DNA of 64,000 nt, from assembly GCA_023382385.1 (NCBI GenBank), contig JAHDVH010000003.1, forward strand, positions 310,001-374,000, in the 5' to 3' direction. The translations under genes were made by a program, and so were the position numbers. Shown here piece by piece: positions 46,155 through 63,596 of this stretch (its first letter is position 1; each line of letters opens with the position of its first letter). The notes below the pieces were generated by a model, which was not told the DNA's origin, did not search any database, and saw nothing but the letters and a program-made list of their open reading frames with translations. The stretch is from a bacterium (GTDB lineage Bacteria; Electryoneota; RPQS01).

Positions 46155-46688
46155 ATGAAATTCAATCGAATCATTATCAGTGCCGGCATCTGCCTGGCCT
46201 TCGCCATCAGCTCCTTTGCACAGGATGAGGCAAAGACTCCGACCTATGTCGGCTCGGGTAAGTGCAAGATCTGCCATAAGGGTGAGAAGAACGGCAACAT
46301 CTACGAAACTTGGCTTGACAGCAAACATGCTAAAGCGTTGGAAACCCTTGTCGCAAAGGGCGAGCAGAACAACCCTGAATGTTTGTCCTGCCACACCACC
46401 GGCTATGGAACGGCCAGTGGCTTTGACAAAATGCCCGATCTGCATGGCATGGAAGATTTAGGCGGCGTCGGCTGCGAATCCTGTCACGGCCCGGGTTCTG
46501 AGTACAAGACCAAGAAGATTATGGAGTCCCGCGAAGCGTCGATCGCTGCCGGAATGTGGATTCCGGATGAAAATACCTGCAAGACTTGTCATAACGAAAA
46601 GTCCCCCACCTTTAAGGGCTTCAATTACGAAGAAGCATTGCAGAAGATTATCCATCACGTCCCGCCAAAGGCGGAAGCCACCGAATAA
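46155..46688 (+). CDS. Tetrahaem cytochrome c, c554-like
   Basis: 177 residues. Signal peptide ends near SSFAQ (22). Four haem-c sites: CKICH (about 37), CLSCH (75), CESCH (101) and CTKCH-type CKTCH (144). The pattern YVGSGKCKICH, WLDSKHAKALETL, PECLSCHTTGYG and GVGCESCHGPGSEY is that of the cytochrome c554 family found beside many periplasmic electron-transfer systems. It is a soluble periplasmic carrier by prediction. It precedes the Hmc-like module by 170 bases containing two hairpins, so it may be the first gene of that operon or an independent one. Confidence 0.9.
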   Translation: MKFNRIIISAGICLAFAISSFAQDEAKTPTYVGSGKCKICHKGEKNGNIYETWLDSKHAKALETLVAKGEQNNPECLSCHTTGYGTASGFDKMPDLHGMEDLGGVGCESCHGPGSEYKTKKIMESREASIAAGMWIPDENTCKTCHNEKSPTFKGFNYEEALQKIIHHVPPKAEATE

Positions 46689-46703
46689 TTTTGTCCTGAT
46701 GAT

Positions 46704-46787
46704 GGTCGGCGCAACGGGACTTCCCCGCGAGGAAGTCCTGCGCCGGCCACAGTGGACGCAACACCTTTTGACCCGGAGTTTCCGGGT
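46704..46787 (+). repeat. Two intercistronic hairpins
   Basis: A long imperfect hairpin (46704-46748; ggtcggcgca and ggacttcc arms matched by ggaagtcc and tgcgccggcc, with a 3-base bulge), then ACCCGG / CCGGGT (46771-46787). Neither has a real T tract; they may attenuate read-through from the tetrahaem gene. Confidence 0.55.
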
Positions 46788-46804
46788 TTGCGCACGGGGA
46801 TTCT

Positions 46805-46820
46805 TGTGAAAAATTTCACA
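46805..46820 (+). promoter_or_regulatory. Crp/Fnr-type palindrome upstream of the Hmc-like operon
   Basis: TGTGA-AAAATT-TCACA, an exact match to the E. coli CRP half-site arrangement TGTGA-N6-TCACA, centred about 46 bases before the start codon at 46859. No good -10/-35 pair is placed for class I or II activation, so a roadblock or repression mode, or a chance hairpin, are alternatives. Confidence 0.4.
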
Positions 46821-46858
46821 TGAGTCGGTGAGACTCCGGCCAAAAGGGGGAACCGAAT

Positions 46859-47812
46859 ATGAAGATTAATCGTCGTAACTTCCTGAAACTTGCCGGACTT
46901 GCCACCGCTAATGTGGCCGTCGGCACGCTGCCGGGCAAAGCCGTCGCCTCCCCCGGCCACTTTACGGGTCACCCCGAACGGCGCGGCGTACTTGTGGACA
47001 CCACACAGTGCATCGGACTGAACTGCCGACGCTGTGAACTTGCCTGTGCCAAAGAGCACAACCTGCCGACGCCGGAAAAAGCTCCCGAAGATCCCACCGT
47101 CTTCGACAAGAGACGACGGACACACGCCGACCAGTTCACCGTCGTCAATCGCTTCAAGGGACAGTCGCCTGAAACCCCGATCTACGCCAAGAAGCAGTGC
47201 ATGCACTGCGATGAACCGGCGTGTGCTTCCGCGTGTCTGGTCGGCGCATTTTCCAAAACGCCAAGCGGCGCAGTCGAGTATGATGCCAGCGTCTGCATCG
47301 GCTGCCGATACTGCATGGTCGCCTGTCCCTTTGATATTCCCACGTACGAGTATTTCAGTGCACTTCACCCTCGGGTTCGCAAGTGCACTTTTTGTTTTGA
47401 ATCGCGGCTCCAGCAGGGCAAACCGCCTGCCTGTGTCGAAGCCTGTCCTCGCGAAGTCATGACGTTCGGCCGCAGGGAAGACTTGATCAAAGTCGCACGA
47501 CAAAAGATTGTCCGAAGTCCCAACCGATACGTCGATCACATCTATGGTGAACACGAAGTCGGCGGCACAAGCTGGATGTATCTCTCGTCCGTGCCGTTTG
47601 ACCAAATCGGCTTCCGCACGGATCTGGGGACCACTCCCTACCCCGAACTGACGCGCAACTACCTGTCGGCCGCGCCGCTGGTCATGGCGATTTGGCCGAC
47701 GTTCTTCCTGAGCATCTATCTGTTCACCAAACGCAAGGAGGAACTCGCCGCTGAACAGCGCCTGCTGAATCCCTCTGCGGACGGAAATCACAGAACCAAG
47801 GAGGACAAGTAA
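46859..47812 (+). CDS. Tat-exported 4x[4Fe-4S] ferredoxin-like subunit (HmcB/HybA/DsrO type)
   Basis: 317 residues. Twin-arginine signal NRRNFLKLAGL at the N-terminus. The 4Fe-4S pattern is that of DMSO-reductase-type electron-transfer subunits: CIGLNCRRCELAC (about 51-63, unusual C-x4-C-x2-C-x3-C spacing), CMHCDEPACASAC (about 117-129), CIGCRYCMVAC (about 148-158), then CTFC and CVEAC. A C-terminal membrane helix (about 272-290, PLVMAIWPTFFLSIYLF) anchors it, as in HybA and HmcB. It should pass electrons between the NrfD-like quinone subunit and the multihaem cytochrome on the periplasmic side. Overlaps the next gene as TAATG. Confidence 0.9.
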   Translation: MKINRRNFLKLAGLATANVAVGTLPGKAVASPGHFTGHPERRGVLVDTTQCIGLNCRRCELACAKEHNLPTPEKAPEDPTVFDKRRRTHADQFTVVNRFKGQSPETPIYAKKQCMHCDEPACASACLVGAFSKTPSGAVEYDASVCIGCRYCMVACPFDIPTYEYFSALHPRVRKCTFCFESRLQQGKPPACVEACPREVMTFGRREDLIKVARQKIVRSPNRYVDHIYGEHEVGGTSWMYLSSVPFDQIGFRTDLGTTPYPELTRNYLSAAPLVMAIWPTFFLSIYLFTKRKEELAAEQRLLNPSADGNHRTKEDK

Positions 47813-49050
47813 TGGCTACTGTCCTCGCTCCTCCTGCTCACCTGCGTCCTACGCCGAACTTCGTTCGTGATAAGCTGCTGCTCGGCATGACGCCGCGCGA
47901 GTATCTCAAGAGTTTGATGACTCCCGGACATTACATTGCCGCACTGATTCTGGCTGTCGGAATTCCCGTCACCTATCAACGCTTCACCGGAGGTATCGGC
48001 GCGATTTCCAACCTTACCGACGCCAATCCGTGGGGTATCTGGATCGGTATCGATGTGCTCTGCGGGGTCGCGCTGGCTGCCGGAGGATTCATCATCGGCT
48101 CCATCTACCACATCTTCGGTATGCACGAATACAAACCGCTCGTGCGTCCGGCCATACTCACGGGCTTTCTCGGCTACGCGCTCGTCGTGTTCGGTTTGAT
48201 GTTCGACTTGGGCCGCCCGTGGCGTCTCCCCTATCCGATGGTCTGGTCATTCGGCACAAGCTCAGTCATGTTTGAAGTCGGCTGGTGTGTCGCACTGTAT
48301 TTGTTCTGTCAGTTCATTGAATTCTGGCCGCCGCTCTTCGAGTGGATTGGAGCCAAACGCGCGCGTGCCTTTGCCGTCAAGCTGACGCTCGGTGCGACGG
48401 TGATGGCCGTGGTCCTTTCGACGCTGCACCAATCATCACTTGGCGCGCTCTTCCTGATTATGCCGTCCAAGCTGCATCCGCTGTGGTACAGCATGTATCT
48501 GCCGGTCTTCTTCCTGATTTCGGCAGTCTCGGGCGGAATCGGAATGATCATCTTCGAAGCCACCATGTCCCACCGCTACTTCAAGATGCAAACTGGACAT
48601 CTGAGTCATCGCGAGCTTGACAAGCTCATTCTCGGGTTGGCAAAGGGTGGTGCGCTTGTTCTTTATCTCTACTTCTGGCTCAAGATCATCGGCGTGGCGC
48701 ATGAACACCAGTGGGCATTGATTGCCACCGGATGGGGAGCGTGGTGGCTCGTGGAAGTCGTCGGCTTTATCCTGCTCCCGGCCTTCATGTTCCTGTTCGC
48801 TGTGCGCAGACTGAGTCCGACCCTCGCTCGCATTGCCGCCGTCTGGACCGTGTTGGGACTCATCCTCAACCGGGTAAACGTTTCCATCATCGCACTGAAC
48901 TGGTATGCCGAGGAACGCTACATCCCGCATTGGAAGGAAATTACCGTCACTTTGATGATTATCACAATCGGCGTGTTAGTCTTTAAGTTCATCGTGAATC
49001 GCATGCCGATTCTCCTGCAGCATCCTGATTATGCGGGCGACAGCCATTAA
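47812..49050 (+). CDS. NrfD/HybB/HmcC-type integral membrane subunit
   Basis: 412 residues with about ten predicted membrane helices. TPREYLKSLMTPGHYIAALIL, NPWGIWIGIDVLCGVALAAGGF and FDLGRPWRLPYPMVWSFG match the NrfD/PsrC family; ETTVHQSSLGALFLI-type text appears here as STLHQSSLGALFLIMP. These proteins bind quinol without haem and couple to the ferredoxin subunit. Together with the upstream ferredoxin and downstream small protein and multihaem cytochrome it reproduces the HmcB-HmcC-HmcD order. Direction of electron flow (quinol oxidation or reduction) is not determined by sequence. Confidence 0.92.
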   Translation: MATVLAPPAHLRPTPNFVRDKLLLGMTPREYLKSLMTPGHYIAALILAVGIPVTYQRFTGGIGAISNLTDANPWGIWIGIDVLCGVALAAGGFIIGSIYHIFGMHEYKPLVRPAILTGFLGYALVVFGLMFDLGRPWRLPYPMVWSFGTSSVMFEVGWCVALYLFCQFIEFWPPLFEWIGAKRARAFAVKLTLGATVMAVVLSTLHQSSLGALFLIMPSKLHPLWYSMYLPVFFLISAVSGGIGMIIFEATMSHRYFKMQTGHLSHRELDKLILGLAKGGALVLYLYFWLKIIGVAHEHQWALIATGWGAWWLVEVVGFILLPAFMFLFAVRRLSPTLARIAAVWTVLGLILNRVNVSIIALNWYAEERYIPHWKEITVTLMIITIGVLVFKFIVNRMPILLQHPDYAGDSH

Positions 49051-49065
49051 GGAAGGATGATATCC

Positions 49066-49188
49066 ATGTATACATTACATGACTTTACTGTTCTGACACA
49101 GACGGGTGAATATCTTGTCGCCATCCTCGGTCTGTTATCGTTTGTCCCATTTTGGAAAGCTTTGAATCAACGACCCAAGCGCCACTAA
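49066..49188 (+). CDS. Small single-span membrane protein (HmcD-like)
   Basis: 40 residues, found by reading the gap between the NrfD-like and 13-haem genes. The ATG at 49066 follows GGAAGGA by 9 bases. The translation starts MYTLHDFTVLTQTG, has one hydrophobic span (about 15-31, EYLVAILGLLSFVPFW) and ends in a basic tail (RPKRH), so the C-terminus should be cytoplasmic. In Desulfovibrio the Hmc operon places the tiny membrane protein HmcD just after the NrfD-like HmcC. Homology to HmcD cannot be shown at this length; position, size and topology support it. Confidence 0.75.
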   Translation: MYTLHDFTVLTQTGEYLVAILGLLSFVPFWKALNQRPKRH

Positions 49189-49217
49189 TCGCGCTGTCGA
49201 GTCGGAGAATTCCGGCC

Positions 49218-50327
49218 ATGAAATATTACATATTCTTGCTTATCGCCAGTTTTACGCTTGTGCTCTCCAGCGAGCGCGCCGAAGCCGTCTCGCAGCAACC
49301 CGGCGCGTCCAATGGCTGCTCGCAATGTCACGTCTGCCGGACACCTACGGCGGACGACCCTTGCCTCCGTATCTGCCCGCGACCGCGCGTCACCCCGCAA
49401 GATCTGAAGATGGGGCCGGATGAAGTGCTCATCAACGAACTCGAGAATGAGTACGAAGCCGTTCGTTTTTCGCATCGCCTGCATGCGGAAATGACCGCGA
49501 TGGATCGCGGATGTCAGGATTGTCACCACTTCCAGCAGGTCGGCGGCATCACCGCCTGCAAAGATTGTCATCCCCCGCACATCGCCGACGAAAATCTCGA
49601 ACAGCCGGGCCTGAAAGGTGCCTATCATCGGCAATGTCTTGGCTGCCATCAGGATTGGAGTCACGACACGTCCTGCGAAATCTGCCACCTGAAGAAGGGA
49701 CAAGAGACGGCGACGCATCCGCTGCCTAAGCGTTCGCCCGGAAGCAAATTCGCCGGACTCGTCGAACCTGAAAAGAAGGTCTGGCATTCGTCCTATGGCG
49801 GCGGAACGATTGTCACGCTGTTTCACAGAAATCACACCGAGAAATACGGCATCTCGTGTGCATCGTGCCATCATGCTGAAGGCTGCGCGTCGTGTCATTC
49901 GAAATCCGAGCAAACCACCACGTCCATTCGCCACAGCGAAGAAGCTTTGCACGGCATCTGCAATTCCTGTCACTCGGAGATGAGCTGCAATCAGTGTCAC
50001 ATGAAAACGGAAGCCGTTGAGTTTTCTCACGACCGGACGGGGTGGCCGCTCAAGTTCTACCACGAACGACTGTCGTGCCGCCGGTGTCACGGCAATCCGA
50101 ATCACTTTACGAAACCGTCGCGCGACTGCAATAGTTGCCACAAGGACTGGGCCGTCGGCACGTTCAAACACGCGCACACCGGCTACGGATTGAACGACAC
50201 GCATGCTGAAATCTCCTGCGAGGAATGCCACGTCGGGAAGAATTTCGCGGTCAAACCGACCTGCAATTCGTGTCACGACAACGACATTACATATCCTGCA
50301 TCGCAACCCGGTGGAAGATTGAGATAA
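49218..50327 (+). CDS. 13-haem cytochrome c (HmcA/class III-like)
   Basis: 369 residues from ATG 49218 (MKYYIFLLIASF signal peptide ending near AEAVS); the frame extends to 49152 without a signal. Thirteen CXXCH sites: CSQCH, CQDCH, CKDCH, CLGCH, CEICH, CASCH twice, CNSCH, CNQCH, CRRCH, CNSCH, CEECH, CNSCH. Several His residues sit one turn before them (FSHRLH, YHRQ), as in cytochrome c3-type bis-His haems. Just after the first site come extra cysteines (CHVCRTPTADDPCLRIC) not explained by haem binding. Periplasmic electron acceptor or donor for the membrane complex. No paralogy to the next two genes outside the haem motifs. Confidence 0.9.
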   Translation: MKYYIFLLIASFTLVLSSERAEAVSQQPGASNGCSQCHVCRTPTADDPCLRICPRPRVTPQDLKMGPDEVLINELENEYEAVRFSHRLHAEMTAMDRGCQDCHHFQQVGGITACKDCHPPHIADENLEQPGLKGAYHRQCLGCHQDWSHDTSCEICHLKKGQETATHPLPKRSPGSKFAGLVEPEKKVWHSSYGGGTIVTLFHRNHTEKYGISCASCHHAEGCASCHSKSEQTTTSIRHSEEALHGICNSCHSEMSCNQCHMKTEAVEFSHDRTGWPLKFYHERLSCRRCHGNPNHFTKPSRDCNSCHKDWAVGTFKHAHTGYGLNDTHAEISCEECHVGKNFAVKPTCNSCHDNDITYPASQPGGRLR

Positions 50328-50331
50328 TTCC

Positions 50332-52812
50332 ATGAAACGAGCACTTCTTACTCTCCTGCTTGTTGCCTGTTTCGGCACGCTGGCTTACGCAAACAAAGAC
50401 AAAGACGCGGCCTGCATCGAGTGTCACTCCGACGCGACGCTGACACGGACGAATCGAGACGGTTCCATCGTGTCGCTGGCCGTGACCCCGGACTCGCTCG
50501 CTCGCTCGAAACACGCTTCGCTCGCCTGTGTGGACTGCCACGCCGATTTGAAGAACTTTGATGACTGGCCGCACGCCGAACGACTGGCAGCCGTGAGCTG
50601 CGCAAGCTGTCACAAGGAAGCTGCGACGGAAGTTGCCATGGGCGGACATGAAGGTGTCTTGAAGTGCGCATCATGTCATGGAACCCATAACATATTGGAT
50701 ACCAAAGACCCGCGGTCAATGGTCTCAAAAGAGAAAATAGATCGCAGCTGCGAGCAGTGCCATAACAGGATGCATCCCCCTCATCGCGGACGTACCACCG
50801 TCTATGAAAGCTACGACGTCGGCATTCATGGAAGGCTCGCAAAACTTGGAAAACAGGGTCTGCCCTCCTGCACGGATTGCCACTCGTCGCACGCCGTGCA
50901 CGCGGAAGATCGCCAACCCGAAAAGCTTGAACAATCCTGTTTGAACTGCCACAGTGAGATCGTCGCGGAATTCAAGAAGTCGGTGCACGGTCAGTTCCGC
51001 GATGGCAGAAATCTCTCGCACTGTTTCGATTGTCACGGTGAACATCGCAGCCGCGCGCCATCAGACTCTACCTTGCGCGTGACAAACGAGTCACCGGCCG
51101 AGGCGACCTGCGGCGCCTGCCACGAAGAGTCCGTGAGGCTTTACAATCAGAGCTTGCATGCGTATGCGCTGCAGAGCGGTTCTCCACGCGCACCGCGCTG
51201 TGAAAGCTGTCACGGCGCACATAACATCCGCAAAGTGGACGACCCCGAATCGCCGATGCACCGCTCAAAACAGGTCGAGACATGCGCAAAGTGTCATAGC
51301 CAGATCGGCATCGCGCTCGATCCTGAAGTGCGGCTGCCGCGATCTTTCGAAAACTATCTCGAAAGCACGCACGGCAAACTTCTGAAGCAGGGCAACGAGA
51401 ACGTTCCTGTCTGCATCGATTGTCACGGCGGTCACGCGGTGCTTGGCAGCACGAACCCGCTGTCCACAATTACGCTGACTAACATTCACAAGACCTGCGG
51501 ACAGTGCCATCCGAAAGAACAGCAGCTTTACGAAGTTTCCATTCACTACCGCGCACTGATGAGCGGCATCACGGACAGCCCGACGTGCACAGGATGTCAT
51601 GGTGAGCACTTGATGGTTTCGCCGAAGGATCCGAAGAGCAAGGTCAGTCACGCGCGAATCGCGGCGGAAACGTGCGGAAAGTGTCACGAAAACCCCGATA
51701 TCATTCGCAAGTATGGATTGGCCCCGGACGTGGTCTCAACATATACAGACAGTTATCACGGTCTGGCCACGCGGGCAAGAAACCGGAAAACTCCCTCGTG
51801 TGCAGATTGCCACGGTGCGCACGACGTGAGAACTGCGGCAGACCCGCTGTCCTCCATTCATGAAGCCAACGTCGTGCAGACCTGCGCGACTTGCCATCCC
51901 CGAGCGGATGCGAAGTTCGCGGCATCTTATACTCACCGTGCCTTGCAGCCGCGCGAGGGCGGGGCTCAATGGTGGATTGCGCGGATCTATTGGATTCTGA
52001 TTTTTGCGGTTATCGGCGGAATGGTCCTGCACAACCTGATCATCCTGAACTATCATATGATCAAGGCGCGCGAGCATCAAACCAGCGGTCCGAAAGTCAC
52101 GAGATTTGACCGGCATCAGATCATTCAACACTTGGTCCTCTCGTTCACGTTTATTCTGCTCGCAATAACGGGATTTGCTCTGAAGTATCCGGACGCGTGG
52201 TGGGTCAGGATGCTCGCTTCGATCGGCTTCAGCGAAGGCATTCGCAGTGTCACGCATCGCGTCATGGCAGTAGGTTTGATCGCGTGCTCGATCTATCACA
52301 TCGTCTATCTGTTCTGGACAAGGCGCGGCCGTGAAGAGTGGCAGGCACTGATACCGGCTAAGACGGATGTCAGCGACTTGACCGAGAATCTCTCCTATCA
52401 CATGCAGAAGCGCAAGGATCCGCCGAAGTTTGATCGTTATGATTACTCACAGAAGGCGGAGTATTGGGCGCTGATCTGGGGAACAATCCTGATGATTGCT
52501 ACTGGATTTGTGCTGTGGTTCCCCGCAGAACTTTCTCCGATTCTTCCGGCGTGGGCGATTCCGGTCAGCCAGACCATCCACCTCTATGAAGCATGGCTCG
52601 CGACGCTTGCGATCGTTGTGTGGCACTTCTTCTTCGTCATCTTCCATCCCGAGGAGTATCCCATGAGCTGGACATGGTTGACGGGCAAGATTCCGCTGCA
52701 TCTTGTCAAGCATCGTCACGGCCGCTGGTACGAGAAAATTACAGCCGGAAAGACCGACGTTGAGACGAGCGAGACTGAGGCGCCCAAGCCAACTGAACCC
52801 GCATCAGAATAA
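50332..52812 (+). CDS. 17-haem cytochrome c fused to membrane cytochrome b domain
   Basis: 826 residues. Signal peptide MKRALLTLLLVACFGTLAYA. Residues 25-530 carry 17 CXXCH sites (from CIECH to CATCH) in repeating CxxCHG-(T/A/E)H units. Residues 545-780 hold five hydrophobic spans of the b561/NarI/FdnI type with His in facing helices (IIQHLVLSFTF, THRVMAVGLIACSIYH, TIHLYEAWLATLAIVVWHFF), able to bind two haems b. The C-terminus is a charged cytoplasmic tail. The closest known architecture is Geobacter CbcL, which joins about nine haem-c sites to a b domain; this one has nearly twice as many. Predicted inner-membrane quinol oxidase with a periplasmic wire. Confidence 0.9.
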   Translation: MKRALLTLLLVACFGTLAYANKDKDAACIECHSDATLTRTNRDGSIVSLAVTPDSLARSKHASLACVDCHADLKNFDDWPHAERLAAVSCASCHKEAATEVAMGGHEGVLKCASCHGTHNILDTKDPRSMVSKEKIDRSCEQCHNRMHPPHRGRTTVYESYDVGIHGRLAKLGKQGLPSCTDCHSSHAVHAEDRQPEKLEQSCLNCHSEIVAEFKKSVHGQFRDGRNLSHCFDCHGEHRSRAPSDSTLRVTNESPAEATCGACHEESVRLYNQSLHAYALQSGSPRAPRCESCHGAHNIRKVDDPESPMHRSKQVETCAKCHSQIGIALDPEVRLPRSFENYLESTHGKLLKQGNENVPVCIDCHGGHAVLGSTNPLSTITLTNIHKTCGQCHPKEQQLYEVSIHYRALMSGITDSPTCTGCHGEHLMVSPKDPKSKVSHARIAAETCGKCHENPDIIRKYGLAPDVVSTYTDSYHGLATRARNRKTPSCADCHGAHDVRTAADPLSSIHEANVVQTCATCHPRADAKFAASYTHRALQPREGGAQWWIARIYWILIFAVIGGMVLHNLIILNYHMIKAREHQTSGPKVTRFDRHQIIQHLVLSFTFILLAITGFALKYPDAWWVRMLASIGFSEGIRSVTHRVMAVGLIACSIYHIVYLFWTRRGREEWQALIPAKTDVSDLTENLSYHMQKRKDPPKFDRYDYSQKAEYWALIWGTILMIATGFVLWFPAELSPILPAWAIPVSQTIHLYEAWLATLAIVVWHFFFVIFHPEEYPMSWTWLTGKIPLHLVKHRHGRWYEKITAGKTDVETSETEAPKPTEPASE

Positions 52813-52823
52813 ACGACAAGCTC

Positions 52824-55322: not shown

Positions 55323-55346
55323 TTGGGAACGGTTTGTGGAAACTGG

Positions 55347-55377
55347 CGGCGGCCCGGCAACGGGTCGCCGTTTTTTT
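55347..55377 (+). terminator. Intrinsic terminator of the Hmc-like operon
   Basis: 10-bp stem cggcggcccg / cgggtcgccg around GCAA (55347-55370) and a TTTTTTT tract. Confidence 0.92.
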
Positions 55378-55470: not shown

Positions 55471-55888
55471 GATCCTTTCGGTATGACAGGAAAGGTAAGT
55501 GGGAAAGGTAGAGCTTCGTCTGTATTGCGCTGGCTTGTGTTCGCCCCGCGATCGGAGTTACTTAAGTTGGTTCAAGACGAGAGGTGGTTGCTGAGTCATC
55601 AGAGCACAGAAGCGTGGGCGGGCCACAGTTGGCCAGTCTGCCCGGTTCCTCCGGTTCGGTGCTTTGGTTGGTTAGCTGGTGCTAATATAATACAATATTT
55701 ACGAAAAGTCAAGTGTTTTTCGTAAAAATGTTGTAAACATTTGGGCAAATTGGAGTTAGGGGGTCGAGGTGGGTAAACAGGGGATCCTTCAGCCGCAACG
55801 GCTTCAGGATGACGACCTGCTACGGTTGGTGGGTGCACTTTGGGTAGCAACCCGCTTGGACAGGAATCTTTGCAGGATGACACAAAGG
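55471..55888. repeat. Intergenic region with degenerate dispersed-repeat units
   Basis: The 55378-55949 gap has no convincing gene. Three related units occur: GATCCTT...TATGACAGG (55471-55490), GATCCTTC...CAGGATGAC (55783-55813, with an internal hairpin AGCCG-caa-CGGCT) and GAATCTTTGCAGGATGAC (55864-55881). They resemble the short CAGGATGA-type intergenic repeats found in many bacterial genomes. Confidence 0.35.
55684..55742 (-). promoter_or_regulatory. Orphan promoter with nested palindromes
   Basis: Minus-strand TTGACT (55707-55712), 17-base spacer, TATATT (55684-55689). The -35 box lies at the edge of a perfect inverted repeat TTTACGAAAA-N9-TTTTCGTAAA (55698-55726), and a second, AAATGTT-gta-AACATTT (55726-55742), abuts it. 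No gene follows in that direction before the + operon's terminator. Confidence 0.5.
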
Positions 55889-55937
55889 AACTAATTGGGT
55901 GATTGCCAATGCTGGCCATGAGAGTCGCAACGGCGAA

Positions 55938-55971
55938 GAAGAATGCGAACGGCCCCTCTCTCGAGGGGCCG
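55938..55971 (-). terminator. Intrinsic terminator of the porin-cytochrome operon
   Basis: 9-bp stem cggcccctc / gaggggccg around TCTC (55950-55971), followed on the minus strand by TTCGCATTCTTCTT. Confidence 0.75.
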
Positions 55972-56002
55972 CGCAACAGTAAGGCGGATGGCGAATTCGG
56001 TC

Positions 56003-56938
56003 TTACTGGAAGAAGATGTTTACGACACCATTGACATGCAGCGTATCGCCCGGCAGGAAGATAATCTGATTTGCGTCAAAGTAGTTGGAGTTCGGATCCA
56101 CGTTGTGATGACACAAATGACACTGCGGAATTGCGGGATGCGTCGGACTGGCCGGCGGCACCTGATGACAGGAGCGACAGTTGTTAAGAGTCTGCCCCGT
56201 GCCCCACGTCACGGGAACCAGAGGATCCCCGCCGCGGGCGTTGGAATGACAGTAGGTGGCGCAGTTGCTTTGATTCGTATACGTCGCGGGATATCCGTTA
56301 GTAGTTGATATCCGCGCATCGTCGAAGCGCACGTCCGCAGGCAGCGGGCCGATGTGATCCAATCCACGAACGCGATTGTGGCATTCGGTGCAGGAATAGC
56401 GCGTGTGCGCATAATGAGCACCGGGGTTACGGTCACCGAGCGGATTCTGCGCCGAAGGCGGCATGCCGTGACAGGTGCTGCACGACGCCGGACCTGAGTT
56501 CTGCGTGTGGCAGGTGCGGCAGCTTGCCTCTGTGCGGCCACCTGCGAAATCGACACCGTGACATGCCTGACAGTCTCGGATCGTCTGCCACTCCATTGCG
56601 CGAATCTCTGCGGCATGTCCCTGCGCGAAGTCGCCCTGATGCGGATACGAGTGACATTCGTAGCACCCGGTCTGCTGCGCCGAGATCGGCGACGGATCGG
56701 GACGCTCACTGGCCGCAGGATCAAAGGGCAGGATGTTGTGACAGCCTGCGCAGCTTTGTCCCTGACTGCCCATCGCAGCCTGACCGTGCCATTCGGGGCT
56801 ATGCACATCCATCCATCCGGTGGGATGCGTCTTGTAGCTTGACGTCACGCGGTCTTCGCTGCAGGAGAGCACGACAACGGCAATCACCGCAATACTGAGC
56901 AGCGCGAAGAGCGCTGACCTTTTGGAATTAGTTTGCAT
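56003..56938 (-). CDS. 9-haem outer-membrane lipoprotein cytochrome c
   Basis: 311 residues starting inside the 3' end of the previous gene (11-base overlap). Signal helix with lipobox VVLSC near residue 26. Eight CXXCH sites (CAGCH, CYECH, CQACH, CRTCH, CSTCH, CTECH, CRSCH, CHLCH) plus one CX3CH (CATYCHS), a spacing variant akin to those in surface cytochromes of Geobacter. The pattern CHGMPPSAQNP, GAHYAHTRYSCTECH and PVTWGTGQTLNNCRSCH is that of the outer-surface GSU-type multihaem family. As the last gene after barrel and periplasmic cytochrome it takes the place of the OmcB-type surface cytochrome. A beta-strand C-terminus ends VNIFFQ. Confidence 0.88.
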   Translation of the reverse strand: MQTNSKRSALFALLSIAVIAVVVLSCSEDRVTSSYKTHPTGWMDVHSPEWHGQAAMGSQGQSCAGCHNILPFDPAASERPDPSPISAQQTGCYECHSYPHQGDFAQGHAAEIRAMEWQTIRDCQACHGVDFAGGRTEASCRTCHTQNSGPASCSTCHGMPPSAQNPLGDRNPGAHYAHTRYSCTECHNRVRGLDHIGPLPADVRFDDARISTTNGYPATYTNQSNCATYCHSNARGGDPLVPVTWGTGQTLNNCRSCHQVPPASPTHPAIPQCHLCHHNVDPNSNYFDANQIIFLPGDTLHVNGVVNIFFQ

Positions 56939-57836
56939 GGCACCTCACGCAGGTTGGTTCGCGACGCGGAGTGTCATGACAGGACATACAGCTTTCGAGA
57001 TCGAACTCAGCGGCTTCGGCATGCCGTCCGCCGGTCGCAGTCAGGAAACCCGGGCGGAAGTGGTCGGCGGGCAGAATGTTCATCTGCGCGTGACAGTCCA
57101 CACAGAAGCTGCGCTGCTCGTGGCACGTGCCGCACCGGAAGTCGGACAGATGCGCATCGTGGCCGTGACGACTTAAGTAGTTTTTCGGATGCGGGTTGAA
57201 GACGGCGTCGCCCTGATGACAGGACTGGCAATCGAGCTTCGAGCCGCTGATGTGACACATCGAGCAATTTGCGTTGGCAGCGGCAGCTTCAATGCCGTGC
57301 CTTTGATCCCACATGACGGCGTGATCGTCGGGAACGAGTTTCTCGCCGGGCAGGTGACACGTGTTGCATTCCATCGCGACGGCACGCGTGACGTGGCAGT
57401 CCATGCACTCGGACATCGTCGGGAAGCGTCCGCTCTGTTTTGCGGAGATCGGTTCATCGAGATTGTTGTGACAAGCCGTGCATGCGAGCTTGGCATTACT
57501 CAGATGACGCTGATGGCCGAAGCCTGGGCTGTAATCGGAGATCACTTTGAGGATGAATCCATCGTAAGGTTCACCGAGCGCGATGCCCTTACCCGCCAAG
57601 TCGTTGTGCTCGTGACAATCGGCACAGGCCGACCACTTGGGCATCAGATTGTCCGTGCCCGCCCTGCTGGTTTCAACTCCGACGTGACAGGCCGAGCACT
57701 CGAGTCCCTGTTCGATGTGCACGGCGTGGCTGAAGGCAGGCGGTGCCGCGCGTTCAGGCTTGGCCACCGCGAATCTGCCGACGATAAAGACCACGATAAC
57801 GGCGCAACTCAAGATCAGGAAGATGAATCGTTTCAT
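56928..57836 (-). CDS. 11-haem periplasmic cytochrome c
   Basis: 302 residues from ATG 57836 with GGGAGGTG upstream; it overlaps the barrel gene stop as ATGA. The N-terminal hydrophobic segment (about 4-24) is a signal peptide or uncleaved anchor. Eleven CXXCH sites: CSACH, CADCH, CTACH, CMDCH, CNTCH, CSMCH, CQSCH, CGTCH, CVDCH, CMSCH, CVRCH, with distal His residues in AFSHAVH, GFGHQRHL and HGHDAHLSDF as in cytochrome c7/c3 modules. In the porin-cytochrome model it is the periplasm-side plug that feeds the barrel. No lipobox. Confidence 0.9.
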   Translation of the reverse strand: MKRFIFLILSCAVIVVFIVGRFAVAKPERAAPPAFSHAVHIEQGLECSACHVGVETSRAGTDNLMPKWSACADCHEHNDLAGKGIALGEPYDGFILKVISDYSPGFGHQRHLSNAKLACTACHNNLDEPISAKQSGRFPTMSECMDCHVTRAVAMECNTCHLPGEKLVPDDHAVMWDQRHGIEAAAANANCSMCHISGSKLDCQSCHQGDAVFNPHPKNYLSRHGHDAHLSDFRCGTCHEQRSFCVDCHAQMNILPADHFRPGFLTATGGRHAEAAEFDLESCMSCHDTPRREPTCVRCHAN

Positions 57837-59077
57837 GACACACCTCCCAGCATGCGGCGGAAGCTTGTCGTCAGATGGAAGAGCGCGCGCCAATCCTCAC
57901 TGCGCAGCGGATCTTTCAAATGCTCAATCCTTGCTCCGATCGACAACATGCGTTGCGGCGACCACGAGAGACCGCCGTAGATGACTTGTGCTTCGGTATT
58001 GGGACGAATCTCGCTATTCGAACCGCGAGAGTAATCGAACCCGGCCATCCCTTCAAACTCCCGGTAGAGATAACGCGCCTGACCGTAGAAGCCGTCCATG
58101 TCGCCGTCTCCCGCGGAGAGCCAATGCGTGTAGCCGACTTCGGCTTCGGGGATGCCGACGCCGCAGCGAGCTTTGTAGAGCATGTCGTCTTCGGAAAACA
58201 CCAGATAGCCCATACCCGTAGCGTAGATGCCCCGGTTCTTACAGAAAGTCCACTGCGCGCCGCCGCGAGCGGAGGTGGTTTTGGATTCTTCCAAGAACAT
58301 CGCGAAGAAGGAGTCTTCAAAGATACGCGGGGTTTGCGTTCGGACATCGGCGGACACCAGCAGTTTGGTCATGGCCTGCCAATAGGCCGTCAGCTGCGCG
58401 GTTTCGATAGACGACTGCATGAGGTTCATGTGCAAGCGGCCACGCAGAGTCACGTCATCGTGAGGTTTGCCCGAAGCGTCGAGACCTGCGCCGCTAAACA
58501 GGAGGTCACCGTCTCTGCCGACATAGTAATAGGACAGACCGAGACGAGTTCCCTGAATGCGTGTGCGCAGATTGACGCCCGCAGCCATTCCCTGATCGTC
58601 ATTCTCACCATCAAGCCTCAAGGATGAAGCGAGTCGATATCCAACATAGACGCGCGCATCGGTCCTGCGGTTGAACGTGAAGCTACTCCAGAGACCTGTG
58701 ACATTCCCGCGACCGACACCTTCCGTAATCCACTGTTGTCCGCCGCGGATTTCCCACGGGGAATCGGAGGGTTTCCAAATCAGCAGTGCCCGACTGACGC
58801 GCACGGACGCCGAGCTATCGGCGTAGCCGTTCTGATACTCCGCATAGCCGCGCAATGTGCTTTCGAATGACCACGCGCCGCCTCCGCCAAAGCGGTGGAC
58901 ATTGAGACTGAGCAGCGGCACAACCTGCACACGATCCACGGAGTCGTCACGAACGTACGACCAGAGTCCGAAACGTCCGGAGACGGAGGCCGCTCGCGCG
59001 GCCTCCGTACTCACAAACGTCAAGGCAAGTGAGATCGTCAGGAGGAGAGTGCCCTGCCGAGATATTATGAATCGCAT
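57833..59077 (-). CDS. Outer-membrane beta-barrel, candidate porin of a porin-cytochrome conduit
   Basis: 414 residues. Signal peptide ends near ARAASVSG (30). The mature chain alternates amphipathic strands and short turns throughout: SGRFGLWSYVRDD, WSFESTLRGYAEYQNG, VSRALLIWKPSDSPWEIRGGQQWI, ARVYVGYRLASSLRL, GLSYYYVGRDGDLLF, LSIGARIEHLKDPL, ALFHLTTSFRRM. About 18-20 strands fit a barrel of the MtrB/OmbB size class, though shorter than MtrB. Two Cys (FCKNRG, ARCGVG) could form a disulfide. No sequence motif for MtrB is visible; the assignment rests on topology and on the two cytochrome genes translationally coupled downstream. Confidence 0.78.
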   Translation of the reverse strand: MRFIISRQGTLLLTISLALTFVSTEAARAASVSGRFGLWSYVRDDSVDRVQVVPLLSLNVHRFGGGGAWSFESTLRGYAEYQNGYADSSASVRVSRALLIWKPSDSPWEIRGGQQWITEGVGRGNVTGLWSSFTFNRRTDARVYVGYRLASSLRLDGENDDQGMAAGVNLRTRIQGTRLGLSYYYVGRDGDLLFSGAGLDASGKPHDDVTLRGRLHMNLMQSSIETAQLTAYWQAMTKLLVSADVRTQTPRIFEDSFFAMFLEESKTTSARGGAQWTFCKNRGIYATGMGYLVFSEDDMLYKARCGVGIPEAEVGYTHWLSAGDGDMDGFYGQARYLYREFEGMAGFDYSRGSNSEIRPNTEAQVIYGGLSWSPQRMLSIGARIEHLKDPLRSEDWRALFHLTTSFRRMLGGVS

Positions 59078-59124
59078 AATTTTGCGACCGTTCTATTGAT
59101 GAGCGTCAACAAGTGACGCGAGGT

Positions 59125-60843
59125 TTACTCTGTCCAGGCAGCCATCTTGTTTGAATCCGGAGACGTTATGGCGGCACCACTTGCGTGCAGATAGTCAATC
59201 GCGTTGATCAGCAGCGAGCGCGCATACGGGTAGTTGTGGACGCCCATCGAGCCTTCGTTAGTCACGAAGTACCAAGCGTAGCCGGCTTCGCGCTGGACAC
59301 GTGTGGAATTGCTCGCCAAGAAGTTCGGGGAGGTGCCGTTGTTCGGAAGCAGATTGAACAGCGAATCTCTCAGAGCGGCAATTTCCGTACGACGGCCGTG
59401 ATAGTCGAAGTCGGCGGGAGTCGCGTGGCAGGTATTGCAGGCCTGCAGATTCGGTGCAAAGCTGTGTCCGTGCAACGGACCGCCGGGCTGACCGAACGGA
59501 ATCACGTAGATGTGGCACTTGACGCACATGTCTTCAAGCGTGCTTTCACCAATCACAACATCGGGCTGGTGCGGCGATTCACGATTGTAGGTGTAGCCCG
59601 GGATTTCATAGGAGCCGTAGCCAACGACCATGTCGGCCTGACAGCTTCCATGCGGGCCGGGGCGCGCGTTTCCGTTGTTGATTTGGCCGAGGACATTGGC
59701 TTCAGTGCGGCGCGCGTGGTGGCACTGGCCGCAGAGCTGGCCTTTGCCGTAGCTGGGAATGCCCATCGCCTCATTGGGAATCTCGAAGCCTTCGGGATGA
59801 TCCGGTCCGCCGTAGATGATGTCGAACGGTGCGAGAGCACGCAGATAGCTGGGGTTGTTTTCGGCATCGTGCGAGTGCACATCATGGCAAGTTGCACACG
59901 TGACCTGATAGTGTTCTTCCGGCAACTCACGCGTTGCCCATTCGGCGTCCCAAAGCTTAATGAAGCCTTCGTTCGTATGGCAGTCCATACATCCGGTGCG
60001 CGCGAATTCAGTATTAAACTCTTCGAGGCCTCCGGCATTCGCAATCGCATGGCCGTGACCGGATTCCATGTATTCTTCGTTCTGGCTGTGGCAACGATTG
60101 CAGGCGTCACCCGTCAGAGCCTTGTGGATGTCCGGTGCATGTCCTGCGAACTGCGGACCCTGTGGAGAGTGGCAGGCTTCGCATTGCACGTTATGCAGCA
60201 TCGCAGACGGGAAGTCGTCAAAGCCGCCGTTGTCAATACCGGGGGTTGCGATGGAGCCGTCGAAGTTCACGATGTCGTCGTAGCCCGTGACGTGGCACTG
60301 CACGCAATACGGGTTGTTCGTGACATTGCTCGTGACCAGCGTTTCCCAAGCATTCGCGTGGTGAGTGGTCGACCAGCCGTCTACGTAAGCGGCGTGGCAG
60401 TGGCTGCAGCGATTGGCGTTGTCACCTAAGAAGCTCGGGAAGACAGCGGGGACGTAGGTGTTTACACCGACAGTAACCGTCGCAGTCGCGCTGCCGTCGT
60501 TGTCGGTTACGGTCACTGAGACCTGATACAATCCGATTTCCCGAGGCGGAGAGTAATTCGTTACGGCCATCGTCGGAGTTGCGAGTGTGCCGGTCGCGGC
60601 ACTCCACTGATAGGTCATCGGATCGCCGTTCGGATCGTAGGCACTGACGAACAGCACGGTGCTTTCGCCGGTACCTACCGAATCGGGTGCAGCGACAATA
60701 GCGGTAATAATAGGTGCGGAGTCAGGGTTAAGACCTGCAGGACCCGCAGGACCCTGGTCTCCTTCGCAGCCCATGAAAGCGACGGTCACAACCATGACAC
60801 TGACGAGGAGAAATACGGCTGGATGTAATTTTTTTCGATACAT
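59125..60843 (-). CDS. 9-haem lipoprotein cytochrome c with PKD/Ig-like domain
   Basis: 572 residues. Lipobox VAFMGC near residue 26, then a short collagen-like GPAGPAG stub, then a PKD/cadherin-like beta domain (about 40-130: STVLFVSAYDPNGDPMTYQW, YQVSVTVTDNDGSATATVTV). Nine CXXCH sites follow (CSHCH, CVQCH, CEACH, CNRCH, CMDCH, CATCH, CGQCH, CVKCH, CNTCH) in a c554/NrfA-like multihaem domain with HHANAWETL, and a 100-residue haem-free C-terminus. Probably surface-exposed, the PKD domain acting as a stalk or contact site. Located 47 bases upstream of the barrel gene. Confidence 0.88.
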   Translation of the reverse strand: MYRKKLHPAVFLLVSVMVVTVAFMGCEGDQGPAGPAGLNPDSAPIITAIVAAPDSVGTGESTVLFVSAYDPNGDPMTYQWSAATGTLATPTMAVTNYSPPREIGLYQVSVTVTDNDGSATATVTVGVNTYVPAVFPSFLGDNANRCSHCHAAYVDGWSTTHHANAWETLVTSNVTNNPYCVQCHVTGYDDIVNFDGSIATPGIDNGGFDDFPSAMLHNVQCEACHSPQGPQFAGHAPDIHKALTGDACNRCHSQNEEYMESGHGHAIANAGGLEEFNTEFARTGCMDCHTNEGFIKLWDAEWATRELPEEHYQVTCATCHDVHSHDAENNPSYLRALAPFDIIYGGPDHPEGFEIPNEAMGIPSYGKGQLCGQCHHARRTEANVLGQINNGNARPGPHGSCQADMVVGYGSYEIPGYTYNRESPHQPDVVIGESTLEDMCVKCHIYVIPFGQPGGPLHGHSFAPNLQACNTCHATPADFDYHGRRTEIAALRDSLFNLLPNNGTSPNFLASNSTRVQREAGYAWYFVTNEGSMGVHNYPYARSLLINAIDYLHASGAAITSPDSNKMAAWTE

Positions 60844-61353
60844 ATGGTACCCCTTTGGGACCTTTTTCCCTGTTTTGGAAAGCTCCTGCTACGGACGGAA
60901 AATAATGACCCCCCGCGGAAGTTTTCCACAGGGGGTGTCAATAATGTTGATAAGTTTTGTCAGATTAAGATGGCAAACGGGAATGCCTGCGTTGGTCAGC
61001 AACTGATTGGAAACAATGATGATTCGTTGATGATGGAGACTCATTGTGCGTTCAAATTGCAACGACTAATGCCTATCCTTAGCCAATGCATTTATTCTAC
61101 ACAACTTTCGTTCCAAGTGCAACGGTGCAAAGACCTTGGAAGAACCGGATCAGTTCCAGTTCAAAATCTCAAGCCTTTCTTTTTCAGCAATGTAGACCCA
61201 AGCAGTCCACTTTGCAATTTGCTTGATAAGGAGGCTCTTTTCAACACTTAGGTGTTGCGATGCCTCCACGCTGACTTTAGTTGCACGAGTCGAGCCGACT
61301 CGTAACCCTATGGTTTTCAGTAATTAAGCTTTTAATATTGCGCAATTAGCTTT
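60844..61353 (-). other. Long structured leader upstream of the 9-haem gene
   Basis: 510 bases without a gene. On the minus strand RNA can fold ACGAGTCG-GCT-CGACTCGT (61285-61303), a nested hairpin GGAGGC ... CAACAC-ctaa-GTGTTG ... GCCTCC (61230-61267) and a 13-bp stem at 60908-60936 whose two G-U pairs exist only in minus-strand RNA, followed by CATTATTTT. I found no match to the GEMM/c-di-GMP consensus. Could be a terminator after the HTH gene plus an attenuator before the cytochrome. Confidence 0.45.
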
Positions 61354-61662
61354 TTAGTGTCCCGTGGCGCGGTGGTCTCGAATGAAGCGCATGATCTCAT
61401 CACGTTCGAAAAGAATGACTTTACGTGATAAGCGCACACATTTCAAGCGATCTTCACGCACCCAACGCATAATTGTGGTACGATGTACACGGCCGAGCAT
61501 TTCGGCAGCTTCGGACAGAGTTAGTAGTCCCTGCGGTCCTTCTCCCGGCGCACGCGGCGCGGTCCCACCGTCGGCCCGGGTCACCTTAGCAACGCGAGTT
61601 CGCGGTGCTGTGTTCATGGCTTCTCCTTTCGCGGCAGTCTTCATTGGTTTTCGAGTACTCAT
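61354..61662 (-). CDS. Excisionase/MerR-type HTH DNA-binding protein
   Basis: 102 residues from the ATG at 61662, which overlaps the cytochrome stop as ATGA. An ATG at 61617 with AAGGAG 6 bases upstream would give 87 residues and may be the main start. Residues 1-42 are basic and disordered (RADGGTAPRAPGEGP). The HTH_17 domain (about 45-97) reads LLTLSEAAEMLGRVHRTTIMRWVREDRLKCVRLSRKVI with a C-terminal FERDEIMRFI helix. Such proteins act as excisionases or as small BldC-like regulators. No integrase is near, so regulation of the flanking cytochrome genes is the better guess. Confidence 0.82.
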   Translation of the reverse strand: MSTRKPMKTAAKGEAMNTAPRTRVAKVTRADGGTAPRAPGEGPQGLLTLSEAAEMLGRVHRTTIMRWVREDRLKCVRLSRKVILFERDEIMRFIRDHRATGH

Positions 61663-63596
61663 TGGGCTGCTCCAAGCGATTCATACCACCGCTTGAATAG
61701 TTCTGGGTTATGAGCGGTACCGCTTCCGTCTTTCTTCAGCAGGTCCGCCAATTGTTGGTATTTTCGATAAGGTTCACTTCCGGCACGGTAAGCTGACATT
61801 GCTTTCTGCACGTTGCGTGCAATTTCCTGTGCATCGGACTTCCACATTTTCAACGTGTCGGCAGTGTTCTCGTCGTGACACGCGATGCAAGACGGCAAAA
61901 CGTCGCGTGAAACATGAGTCCCGCTTACGGCATGGCAGTCCGTACAAACGATTTCGAGGTCCATTTTAAATGACGGCTTCGCGCCCGCGAATTCAGGAAC
62001 GTTGCCGGCATACACAGCCGCTTGCGTCGTATGACACGTCTTGCAATCTGTCTTCGCCAGTGCAACGGACTCATGGTGGCAGGCGTTGCACTGGTTGCTC
62101 GACATTTGAATCGCGCCGTGACGGTCCGTCCGTTCCGACACGTGGCAGGCTGTACAGTCACCAGCGCGCGAATGTTTGCTATGGTTAAAGAGCTTGCCGT
62201 CATAGGCCACCACAGCGTTGGCCGCGCCCGGGTGACAGACTGCGCAGGCGTGCCCGGTCGCCGCAGGTGAGCCGGTGATGCGCGCGGTGAGCACGTCCAC
62301 CAATTCCGGATTGTGCAACGGATTTCCCCGCCTGTACACATCAATCGCCGCCCGAATCGTGTCTGCTTCCGCAGGACTCAGTGTATGAAGCTTTGCTTCG
62401 AGGTCGCGCAAGCCCTGGGCAATCGTCACTTCCCAACGCGGCCAGAGTCTGTCGAACTCCGCGTCATGACAAGGCGTGCAGGAGGGCGGCTCAGGCTTGC
62501 CGCGAATCGTGTGCACATCCCCTGTGTGACAGGACGTGCAGGACATTCCGGCACTTGCCATAGACGACGGAGAAGGCGGAATGCCGGGCAACTCGCCGCG
62601 CCAAACTTTTTCGATGGCGTTATCCGGTTTGCCGTGGCACTGCCCGCAGGTCCGTTCCTGACTGGCAAACGCGACGGCTTCCTTGCCGTGCCTGATTTGA
62701 ATGTGACAAGCCGTGCATTCCACTTTACGATCGGTCACGTGCATCTGATGAACGAATTCGTGATCATCGTAGCGCTCGATGTGAGCGACCTGCGCGTGAC
62801 AGGAATTGCAGCGTTCGCGCGGGACAAAACCGTCGCCTGCAATTTCCGAAACGTGGCAGCTTGAACAATCAATCTTGCGGGCAAGCATCTCGGTATGGTC
62901 GTAGCTCGTGTCCGCGGCGGCCGGTCCGGTCGGGGGATTGTGACAAATCGTGCATGTGGCGAGCGCAGTCACCTGTCCCAGGGAATCCGGCTTGAAGTGG
63001 CACAGGAAACACGTGGACTCGTTGACCGATATGTGCTCGCCTTGAACGATGTTTGCGTGGCACGATGTGCAGCGCAACTGCCGACCGCGCCGGACATTCT
63101 CGAGATGCGGCTTGTGGTCAAACATCACACCCCGAAAACTCTCGGTGCTCTGCAGCAAGCGAGTGTCATGACAACCGGAACGCAGACAGCTCCTGTCATC
63201 GATTTCCGCCCAAGGCTTTGAGCGCTTATACAGTCCCGTCATATAATTGGTGACCATCGAGATGGCCAAGAACTTCGAGTGAATCGTTCCTTCCAACCCG
63301 GGCGGAATATGGCACTCCGTGCAGGTAACCATACTATGCGTTGATGTTTCCCACGCATCGAAGTAGGGAATCATCACATGACACGACTTACAGAAGTTCG
63401 GCTGCGACGTGACTTTGACAAAGAACAACAAAGAAAACAGAATGACCGCGGCAGAGGCAAACAACACCAAGCCGATGCGTCGCGGTCCGAATTCCATCAA
63501 TCGCTTCCAGCCAACGCCAAAAAGCCAGAAAGGAAGTTTGATCGTCTCCCAGCAGGCGATGAAGAATTCGTGCAGAAGGAACTTGAACTTGGACAC
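61659..63596 (-). CDS. 18-haem NapC/NirT-type membrane cytochrome c
   Basis: 645 residues from a GTG without a strong ribosome site; ATG near residue 34 (MEFGPRRIG) is an alternative. One membrane helix (about 40-60) followed at once by FCKSCHVMIPYFDAWETSTH and CTECHIPPG, the NapC/NrfH signature of menaquinol oxidases. Seventeen CXXCH sites and one CX4CH (CLRSGCH, third position) are spread over the chain, from CKSCH to CIACH. The NapC domain covers about 45-130; the rest is a much longer wire than the 4-haem NapC. In function it may parallel Geobacter ImcH. First gene of the minus-strand cluster and coupled to the HTH gene. Confidence 0.9.
   Translation of the reverse strand: MSKFKFLLHEFFIACWETIKLPFWLFGVGWKRLMEFGPRRIGLVLFASAAVILFSLLFFVKVTSQPNFCKSCHVMIPYFDAWETSTHSMVTCTECHIPPGLEGTIHSKFLAISMVTNYMTGLYKRSKPWAEIDDRSCLRSGCHDTRLLQSTESFRGVMFDHKPHLENVRRGRQLRCTSCHANIVQGEHISVNESTCFLCHFKPDSLGQVTALATCTICHNPPTGPAAADTSYDHTEMLARKIDCSSCHVSEIAGDGFVPRERCNSCHAQVAHIERYDDHEFVHQMHVTDRKVECTACHIQIRHGKEAVAFASQERTCGQCHGKPDNAIEKVWRGELPGIPPSPSSMASAGMSCTSCHTGDVHTIRGKPEPPSCTPCHDAEFDRLWPRWEVTIAQGLRDLEAKLHTLSPAEADTIRAAIDVYRRGNPLHNPELVDVLTARITGSPAATGHACAVCHPGAANAVVAYDGKLFNHSKHSRAGDCTACHVSERTDRHGAIQMSSNQCNACHHESVALAKTDCKTCHTTQAAVYAGNVPEFAGAKPSFKMDLEIVCTDCHAVSGTHVSRDVLPSCIACHDENTADTLKMWKSDAQEIARNVQKAMSAYRAGSEPYRKYQQLADLLKKDGSGTAHNPELFKRWYESLGAAQ

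What the first reader, a model, noticed from the sequence alone, without database searches (positions are those of the whole stretch)
46155..63596. Convergent 98-haem electron-transfer island
Eight genes in 17.5 kb encode 96 CXXCH, one CX3CH and one CX4CH haem-c sites (4, 13, 17, 17 on plus; 18, 9, 11, 9 on minus), plus two membrane cytochrome b domains, a four-cluster ferredoxin, an NrfD-type quinone subunit and a beta-barrel. Every topological step from quinol pool to cell surface is represented. If real, this is a self-contained extracellular electron-transfer system in a lineage where none may have been described.
Basis: partly seen in the sequence, partly recalled or inferred. Interest (0 to 1): 0.88.

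Follow-up and report, generated by a model that had tools for sequence, protein, structure and literature searches.

The report
Porin-cytochrome electron export gene island
An uncultured bacterium of the phylum Electryoneota carries a real, conserved set of genes that very probably wires its inner membrane to the outside of the cell, so that it can breathe on (or draw electrons from) minerals or other outside partners; the machinery is of a known type seen in several other phyla.

Summary
The genome belongs to Candidatus Electryoneota (FCB). Plus strand: a tetrahaem cytochrome, an HmcB/HmcC-like pair, a 13-haem cytochrome and two CbcL-like proteins (17 c-haems plus a b-type membrane domain each). 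Minus strand: an 18-haem NapC-type cytochrome, a 9-haem lipoprotein, a 22-strand barrel, an 11-haem periplasmic cytochrome and a second 9-haem lipoprotein. Barrel and partner form a porin-cytochrome (Pcc) conduit: 25 of 39 Electryoneota genomes have the barrel, and in 16 of 16 loci from other phyla, not used to build the model, the next gene is an 8-14-haem cytochrome. The quinone-side genes recur beside it in distant genomes. So this is a genuine, near-complete extracellular electron-transfer gene set, but of a known kind: Pcc clusters and CbcL homologues are already described, also in FCB phyla. It is not the only one in this genome, which also has a second barrel with 20- and 31-haem cytochromes, an Alternative Complex III-like cluster, oxidases and NrfHA. 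Direction of flow and substrate remain open.

The parts
46155..46688 (+). P1: secreted tetrahaem cytochrome (cytochrome c554 family), likely small periplasmic carrier
   Evidence: 4 CXXCH, signal peptide; PF13435 E 6.7e-15; PDB match cytochrome c554 1bvb E 6.4e-9; homologues with 3-4 haems lie directly after the conduit genes or beside the CbcL-like genes in many phyla
46859..47812 (+). P2: HmcB-like 4Fe-4S ferredoxin with Tat signal and C-terminal membrane anchor
   Evidence: NF045715 HmcB 423.8 bits, cut-off 420; RR motif and TM 271-289
47812..49050 (+). P3: HmcC/NrfD-family quinone-interacting membrane subunit
   Evidence: PF03916 E 3.8e-17; NF045714 511.6 bits, below cut-off 550; about ten TM segments
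49218..50327 (+). P4: periplasmic 13-haem cytochrome, probable partner of P2/P3
   Evidence: 13 CXXCH; class III cytochrome c domains; the long homologues beside P2/P3 all have 13 haems
50332..52812 (+). P5: CbcL-like fusion, 17 c-haems plus cytochrome b561-type membrane domain
   Evidence: homologues with 11-19 haems in many phyla
52824..55322 (+). P6: CbcL-like fusion, 17 c-haems plus cytochrome b561-type membrane domain
   Evidence: all 17 haem sites invariant in 15 sequences; six TM segments in the family mean, nine invariant His after the haem domain
55345..55372 (+). terminator-like hairpin closing the plus-strand set
   Evidence: 12-pair stem with T tail
56003..56938 (-). M5: 9-haem lipoprotein (8 CXXCH + 1 CX3CH), probable surface cytochrome
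   Evidence: lipobox VLSC, haem count; GSu_C4xC__C2xCH domain; homologue follows M4 in most loci
56928..57836 (-). M4: 11-haem periplasmic cytochrome of the conduit (12 haems in most relatives)
   Evidence: haem count; alignment A3; start overlaps the barrel stop as ATGA; always next to the barrel
57833..59077 (-). M3: 22-strand outer-membrane beta-barrel of the conduit
   Evidence: AlphaFold2 model pLDDT 88.2; fold matches to outer-membrane barrels; 27 of 39 phylum genomes
59125..60843 (-). M2: 9-haem lipoprotein with collagen-like stretch and PKD domain, probable second surface cytochrome
   Evidence: homologues next to the barrel in distant loci L061, L063, L092, L099, L113
61354..61662 (-). 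small helix-turn-helix protein, possible regulator
   Evidence: PF12728 E 3.8e-12; kept in G001 and G006
61659..63596 (-). M1: NapC-type membrane-anchored 18-haem cytochrome (17 CXXCH + 1 CX4CH), probable quinol dehydrogenase with a long haem arm
   Evidence: PF03264; all 18 sites invariant in nine sequences of several phyla; NrfH and multihaem PDB matches

Best explanation
The island encodes a quinone-linked extracellular electron-transfer system of the porin-cytochrome (Pcc) type. Electrons leave menaquinol in the inner membrane through any of three kinds of entry module: the HmcB/HmcC-like ferredoxin-NrfD pair with its 13-haem partner (P2-P4), the two CbcL-like multihaem-cytochrome b fusions (P5, P6), and the NapC-type 18-haem cytochrome (M1). 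Their long haem arms, with the tetrahaem carrier P1, pass electrons over the periplasm to M4. M4 sits in the lumen of the 22-strand barrel M3 and hands them to the surface lipoproteins M5 and M2, which reduce an outside acceptor. Shown here: the genes, haem counts, membrane and barrel signatures, and the conserved gene neighbourhood. Inferred: that the parts form one chain, that the quinone is menaquinone, that M4 fills the barrel, that M5 and M2 face outward, and that flow is mainly outward (anaerobic respiration by a facultative organism).
For: Haem count and families. Barrel model with 22 strands, within the 18-22 strands given for Pcc porins in PMC4245776. The barrel profile hits 27 of 39 Electryoneota genomes, 25 strongly, and 49 of 347 sampled genomes outside the phylum. 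In 16 of 16 of these outside loci, none used to build the profile, the gene after the barrel is an 8-14-haem cytochrome. Gene order barrel - M4 - M5 - P1 - P5 - P6 recurs in other Electryoneota, and P2-P3-P4, M1 and M2 recur beside P5/P6 or M3/M4 in Neomarinimicrobiota, Zixibacteria, Calditrichota and others. Fourteen of 16 Electryoneota genomes with full-length P6 also have a strong barrel match. Haem sites are invariant in P6 and M1. Two heme-copper oxidases, one beside an Alternative Complex III-like cluster, plus NrfHA, point to a facultative respirer.
Against: No expression, localisation or redox data exist. Sequence homology of the barrel to Geobacter OmbB was not tested because no reference sequence was at hand. 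The M4 model is weak (pLDDT 66), so a fit in the barrel is untested. Some relatives have the barrel without full-length P6 or the reverse, so the modules are not strictly inseparable. Direction cannot be read from the genes.
Confidence: 0.78

Rival explanations
1. The same conduit runs inward: electrons from Fe(II), another mineral or a partner cell enter through M2/M5-M3-M4 and reduce quinone through the CbcL-like or NrfD modules, feeding oxygen or nitrite reduction.
For: CbcL/MtrH/MtoC homologues occur in both Fe(III) reducers and Fe(II) oxidisers (PMC6295460). Iron-oxidation marker genes were reported for other Electryoneota (PMC10439189). The genome has an Alternative Complex III-like cluster and two heme-copper oxidases.
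Against: Several parallel quinone modules and large surface lipoproteins are, to my knowledge, more usual in metal reducers; carbon fixation, which inward flow would often serve, was not examined here.
Confidence: 0.15
2. The two convergent sets are separate systems: the minus-strand set is an outer-membrane conduit, and the plus-strand set is a periplasmic or inner-membrane respiratory module (for example Hmc-like exchange between periplasmic cytochromes and quinone, or delivery to NrfA) that only happens to lie beside it.
For: Convergent transcription with a terminator-like hairpin between. Some relatives have only one of the two sets. P5/P6-type genes occur in many Bacteroidota loci without a barrel within the fetched stretch.
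Against: In other Electryoneota and in outside loci the two sets lie together on one strand (L090, L091, L092, L206, L209), and 14 of 16 genomes with P6 have the barrel.
Confidence: 0.06

Closest known systems
Porin-cytochrome (Pcc) clusters, e.g. Geobacter ombB-omaB-omcB and Ignavibacterium album IALB_1838/1839 (PMC4245776)
   Same: Small barrel (18-22 strands) next to a periplasmic multihaem cytochrome and an outer cytochrome. An Ignavibacteriales locus (L113) carries homologues of M3 and M4 in which the M4 homologue has 400 residues and 14 haems, the size and count given for IALB_1838.
   Different: M4 has 11 haems here (12 in most relatives) against 8 in the Geobacter periplasmic partner. 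Two putative surface lipoproteins with 9 haems each, against one with 12 in Geobacter. Quinone-side genes are attached to the cluster.
CbcL/MtrH/MtoC family (PMC6295460)
   Same: N-terminal multihaem c domain and C-terminal membrane cytochrome b domain with about six helices and conserved His
   Different: 17 haems against 9 in G. sulfurreducens CbcL; two in tandem, attached to a Pcc cluster and an Hmc-like unit
Hmc complex of sulfate reducers (HmcB, HmcC)
   Same: P2 passes the HmcB cut-off; P3 is close to HmcC
   Different: P3 is below the HmcC cut-off; the cytochrome has 13, not 16, haems and does not reach the HmcA cut-off
MtrCAB / PioAB conduit
   Same: Same principle: haem chain through an outer-membrane barrel
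   Different: 22 strands against 28 predicted for MtrB-type porins (PMC4245776); M4 does not match the DmsE/MtrA model TIGR03508
NapC/NirT/CymA and ImcH quinol dehydrogenases
   Same: M1 starts with one membrane helix and a NapC-type haem domain
   Different: 18 haems in one chain against 4-5 (CymA) and 6-10 (ImcH, which has three helices) in PMC6295460

Membership tests
Porin-cytochrome (Pcc) conduit | outer-membrane porin-like barrel with 18-22 strands | tested here: met
   22 strands in a confident model; range from PMC4245776
Porin-cytochrome (Pcc) conduit | adjacent periplasmic c-type cytochrome with 5-14 haem motifs | tested here: met
   M4, 11 haems, next gene, signal helix; 16 of 16 outside loci likewise
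Porin-cytochrome (Pcc) conduit | outer-membrane multihaem cytochrome in the cluster (most, not all, clusters) | tested here: met
   M5 with lipobox and M2 with lipobox-like signal, 9 haems each; surface position itself is inferred
Porin-cytochrome (Pcc) conduit | sequence kinship of barrel with Geobacter OmbB or IALB_1839 | not tested
   no reference sequence held; only size and haem count of the L113 M4 homologue agree with IALB_1838
Porin-cytochrome (Pcc) conduit | electron transfer across the outer membrane | not testable with these tools
   needs biochemistry
CbcL/MtrH/MtoC | N-terminal domain with 3-23 CX2CH, 416-1034 residues | tested here: met
   P5 826 aa, P6 832 aa, 17 each; ranges from PMC6295460
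CbcL/MtrH/MtoC | about six C-terminal transmembrane helices | tested here: met
   six in the P6 family mean, five seen in P5 (4-6 occur in the family by PMC6295460); PF01292 matched in both
CbcL/MtrH/MtoC | conserved histidines for b haems | tested here: met
   nine invariant His after the haem domain of the P6 family, among them 578, 620, 634, 733, 748
Hmc complex | HmcB ferredoxin | tested here: met
   423.8 bits, cut-off 420
Hmc complex | HmcC at curated cut-off | tested here: not met
   511.6 bits, cut-off 550
Hmc complex | 16-haem HmcA | tested here: not met
   P4 has 13 haems and 39 bits against cut-off 400
MtrCAB | MtrB barrel with 28 predicted strands and decahaem MtrA | tested here: not met
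   22 strands; M4 has 11 haems and no hit to TIGR03508; MtrB/MtrA figures from PMC4245776
NapC/NirT/CymA quinol dehydrogenase | single N-terminal anchor followed by NapC-type haem domain | tested here: met
   TM 41-59, PF03264 above cut-off
NapC/NirT/CymA quinol dehydrogenase | CymA: 4-5 haem motifs only | tested here: not met
   M1 has 18; CymA count from PMC6295460

The most novel reading that the evidence does not exclude
M1 (18 haems) and the 17-haem CbcL-like proteins are single-chain periplasmic wires that reach from quinol to the outer-membrane conduit without small diffusible carriers. With the Hmc-like unit they would form a distinct, recurring electron-transfer architecture of FCB and other uncultured phyla, with three parallel quinone entries that may serve acceptors of different potential.
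Probability: 0.3. Interest if true: 0.62.

Novelty: new member of a known kind. Interest (0 to 1): 0.42.

Why it matters
It gives an uncultured phylum a concrete, testable route for exchanging electrons with minerals or partners. It also shows that the conduit and several quinone-linked cytochromes recur together as a kit over many phyla, so the capacity for extracellular respiration can be predicted by gene neighbourhood rather than by haem count alone. A profile for this barrel, which has no Pfam, NCBIfam or PDB sequence match, would let others find it.

Tried and rejected
A single-sequence scan of genome contigs with the barrel found nothing; an alignment of P6 was needed. MtrB was not among the structural matches listed for the barrel; this says nothing against kinship. 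PDB sequence searches for the barrel and for P3 gave nothing. Rfam found no RNA family in the window. An island of recent foreign origin was considered: GC of the island (about 0.54-0.585) is close to the rest of the window, and the order is kept in relatives, so this was dropped. Literature searches for EET in Electryoneota found no description; absence in this open-access library is weak evidence.
Full report
What was claimed.

Check of the observation. A script gives 96 CXXCH, one CX3CH (CATYCH in M5) and one CX4CH (CLRSGCH in M1), distributed exactly as stated; shuffled proteins give almost none. Pfam and NCBIfam confirm cytochrome c7/c3/c554 domains, two Ni_hydr_CYTB domains, a ferredoxin passing the HmcB cut-off, an NrfD/HmcC-type protein and a NapC-type N-terminus. 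The barrel has no family match by sequence, but an AlphaFold2 model from 20 homologues has mean pLDDT 88 and 22 strands after a signal helix. Its best structural matches are outer-membrane barrels: TonB-dependent receptor and usher barrels (Z about 17-21, rmsd 4-5, about 320-350 aligned residues, about 10% identity) and solute porins. A shared barrel fold suggests location, not function.

Whose genome. The window lies in a 2.9 Mb genome in 7 contigs. A genome given as of the same phylum (G020) carries the same sequence as a record titled Candidatus Electryonea clarkiae (L072 = L091). That species is placed in Candidatus Electryoneota, FCB group. The closest named record with the whole island is the MAG 'bacterium isolate SJ276' (L089, P6 80% identical).

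Layout. Plus strand: P1, then P2-P3-P4-P5-P6 with overlaps or short gaps, closed by a strong terminator-like hairpin at 55345-55372. Minus strand: M1 and a small HTH protein, then M2-M3-M4-M5; the barrel stop overlaps the M4 start as ATGA. M5 has a clear lipobox and M2 a lipobox-like signal; P2 has a Tat motif; P3 has about ten transmembrane segments. In the P6 family, six transmembrane segments follow the haem domain, with nine invariant histidines there.

Conservation. G006 (the SJ276 assembly) keeps the whole convergent arrangement, and the same-genus genome G001 keeps the whole minus-strand set. All 17 haem sites of P6 are invariant in 15 sequences. All 18 sites of M1, the CX4CH included, are invariant in nine sequences of several phyla. 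The long P4 homologues all have 13. M4 has lost one haem that most relatives keep: 11 against 12. The barrel profile matches 27 of 39 Electryoneota genomes, 25 of them with E below 1e-30; 14 of the 16 with full-length P6 also have such a barrel.

An independent test of the conduit. The barrel profile was run over 386 genomes and matched 49 of 347 outside the phylum. I took 16 of these loci, none used to build the profile. In all 16 the next gene is a cytochrome with 8 to 14 haems, in 13 of them best matched by the M4 profile, and often a third cytochrome follows. This is what defines porin-cytochrome clusters: a barrel always associated with a periplasmic multihaem cytochrome and usually an outer one (PMC4245776).

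Link to the quinone side. In other Electryoneota the order is barrel-M4-M5-P1-(P5)-P6 on one strand. In Neomarinimicrobiota, M4, M5, P6, M1, P2, P3 and P4 homologues lie in one run (L094). In Zixibacteria RBG-1, P2, P3, P4 and P5 homologues lie together (L146). M1 lies beside P5/P6-type genes in Calditrichota, Aminicenantes and others. One outside locus holds P2, P3, barrel, M4, a 19-haem CbcL-like gene and an M1-like gene together (L209). So the island is a kit whose parts recur together, not a chance gathering.

Function. The best reading is quinol oxidation by the Hmc-like, CbcL-like and NapC-like modules, transfer over the periplasm by long haem arms and P1, passage of the outer membrane through M4 in M3, and delivery by M5 and M2. 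Direction is inferred. CbcL-type proteins serve both directions (PMC6295460), and iron-oxidation markers were noted for other Electryoneota (PMC10439189). The genome has an Alternative Complex III-like cluster next to a heme-copper oxidase, a second oxidase, NrfHA and an octahaem tetrathionate-reductase family protein, so it is probably a facultative anaerobe for which outward flow without oxygen makes sense.

What is not supported. The system is not the genome's only one. C2:344-365 kb holds proteins with 26, 16, 20 and 31 haems and a second barrel weakly related to M3, and a 32-haem gene lies at the end of C2. CXXCH-coding words number 589 in the genome against 150 for the reversed control, so the island has about a fifth of the excess. 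Nor is the kind new: Pcc clusters are known in FCB (Ignavibacterium, Melioribacter; PMC4245776, PMC7399161), and CbcL homologues in 15 phyla (PMC6295460). An Ignavibacteriales M4 homologue (L113) has 400 residues and 14 haems, the figures given for IALB_1838, which suggests but does not prove that it is the same gene family.

Verdict. A real, conserved, near-complete extracellular electron-transfer gene set of the porin-cytochrome kind in Candidatus Electryoneota: a new member of a known kind. The least familiar parts are the 18-haem NapC-type protein and the tandem of 17-haem CbcL-like proteins attached to the conduit.

Noticed in passing
G000:C2:344-365 kb (L043:7674-10882, L044:2691-8358): Proteins with 26, 16, 20 and 31 haem sites and a 558-residue barrel weakly related to M3; a second, larger candidate conduit in the same genome.
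   Followed up: partly
L045:14451-16879 (end of G000:C2): A gene with 32 haem sites cut off by the end of the contig.
   Followed up: no
L042:3550-5772 (G000:C3:393.5-395.8 kb): Octahaem tetrathionate-reductase family cytochrome with a membrane cytochrome b, about 20 kb beyond the island.
   Followed up: partly
L105, L107, L109, L134, L158, L159: A 19-haem CbcL-like protein of about 925-950 residues is widespread in Bacteroidota, including named strains (Draconibacterium aestuarii, Maribellus sp.), with constant neighbours: a 7-haem protein, a membrane cytochrome b of about 206 residues, a 6-haem protein of about 500 residues and a tetrahaem P1 homologue. Function unknown to me.
   Followed up: no
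window 61354-61662: An excisionase-like HTH gene overlaps M1 and is kept in relatives; possible regulator of the minus-strand set.
   Followed up: partly
L060:11526-13631: An M5-like protein with 24 haem sites beside the conduit in another Electryoneota genome: the outer cytochrome varies strongly in haem number while the barrel and M4 vary little.
   Followed up: no
window 38094-42083 and 42409-45825: Two very large secreted proteins next to the island: a subtilisin-like protease and a von Willebrand A-like protein ending in a sorting-tail-like domain (both read by eye from the translation, not searched).
   Followed up: no
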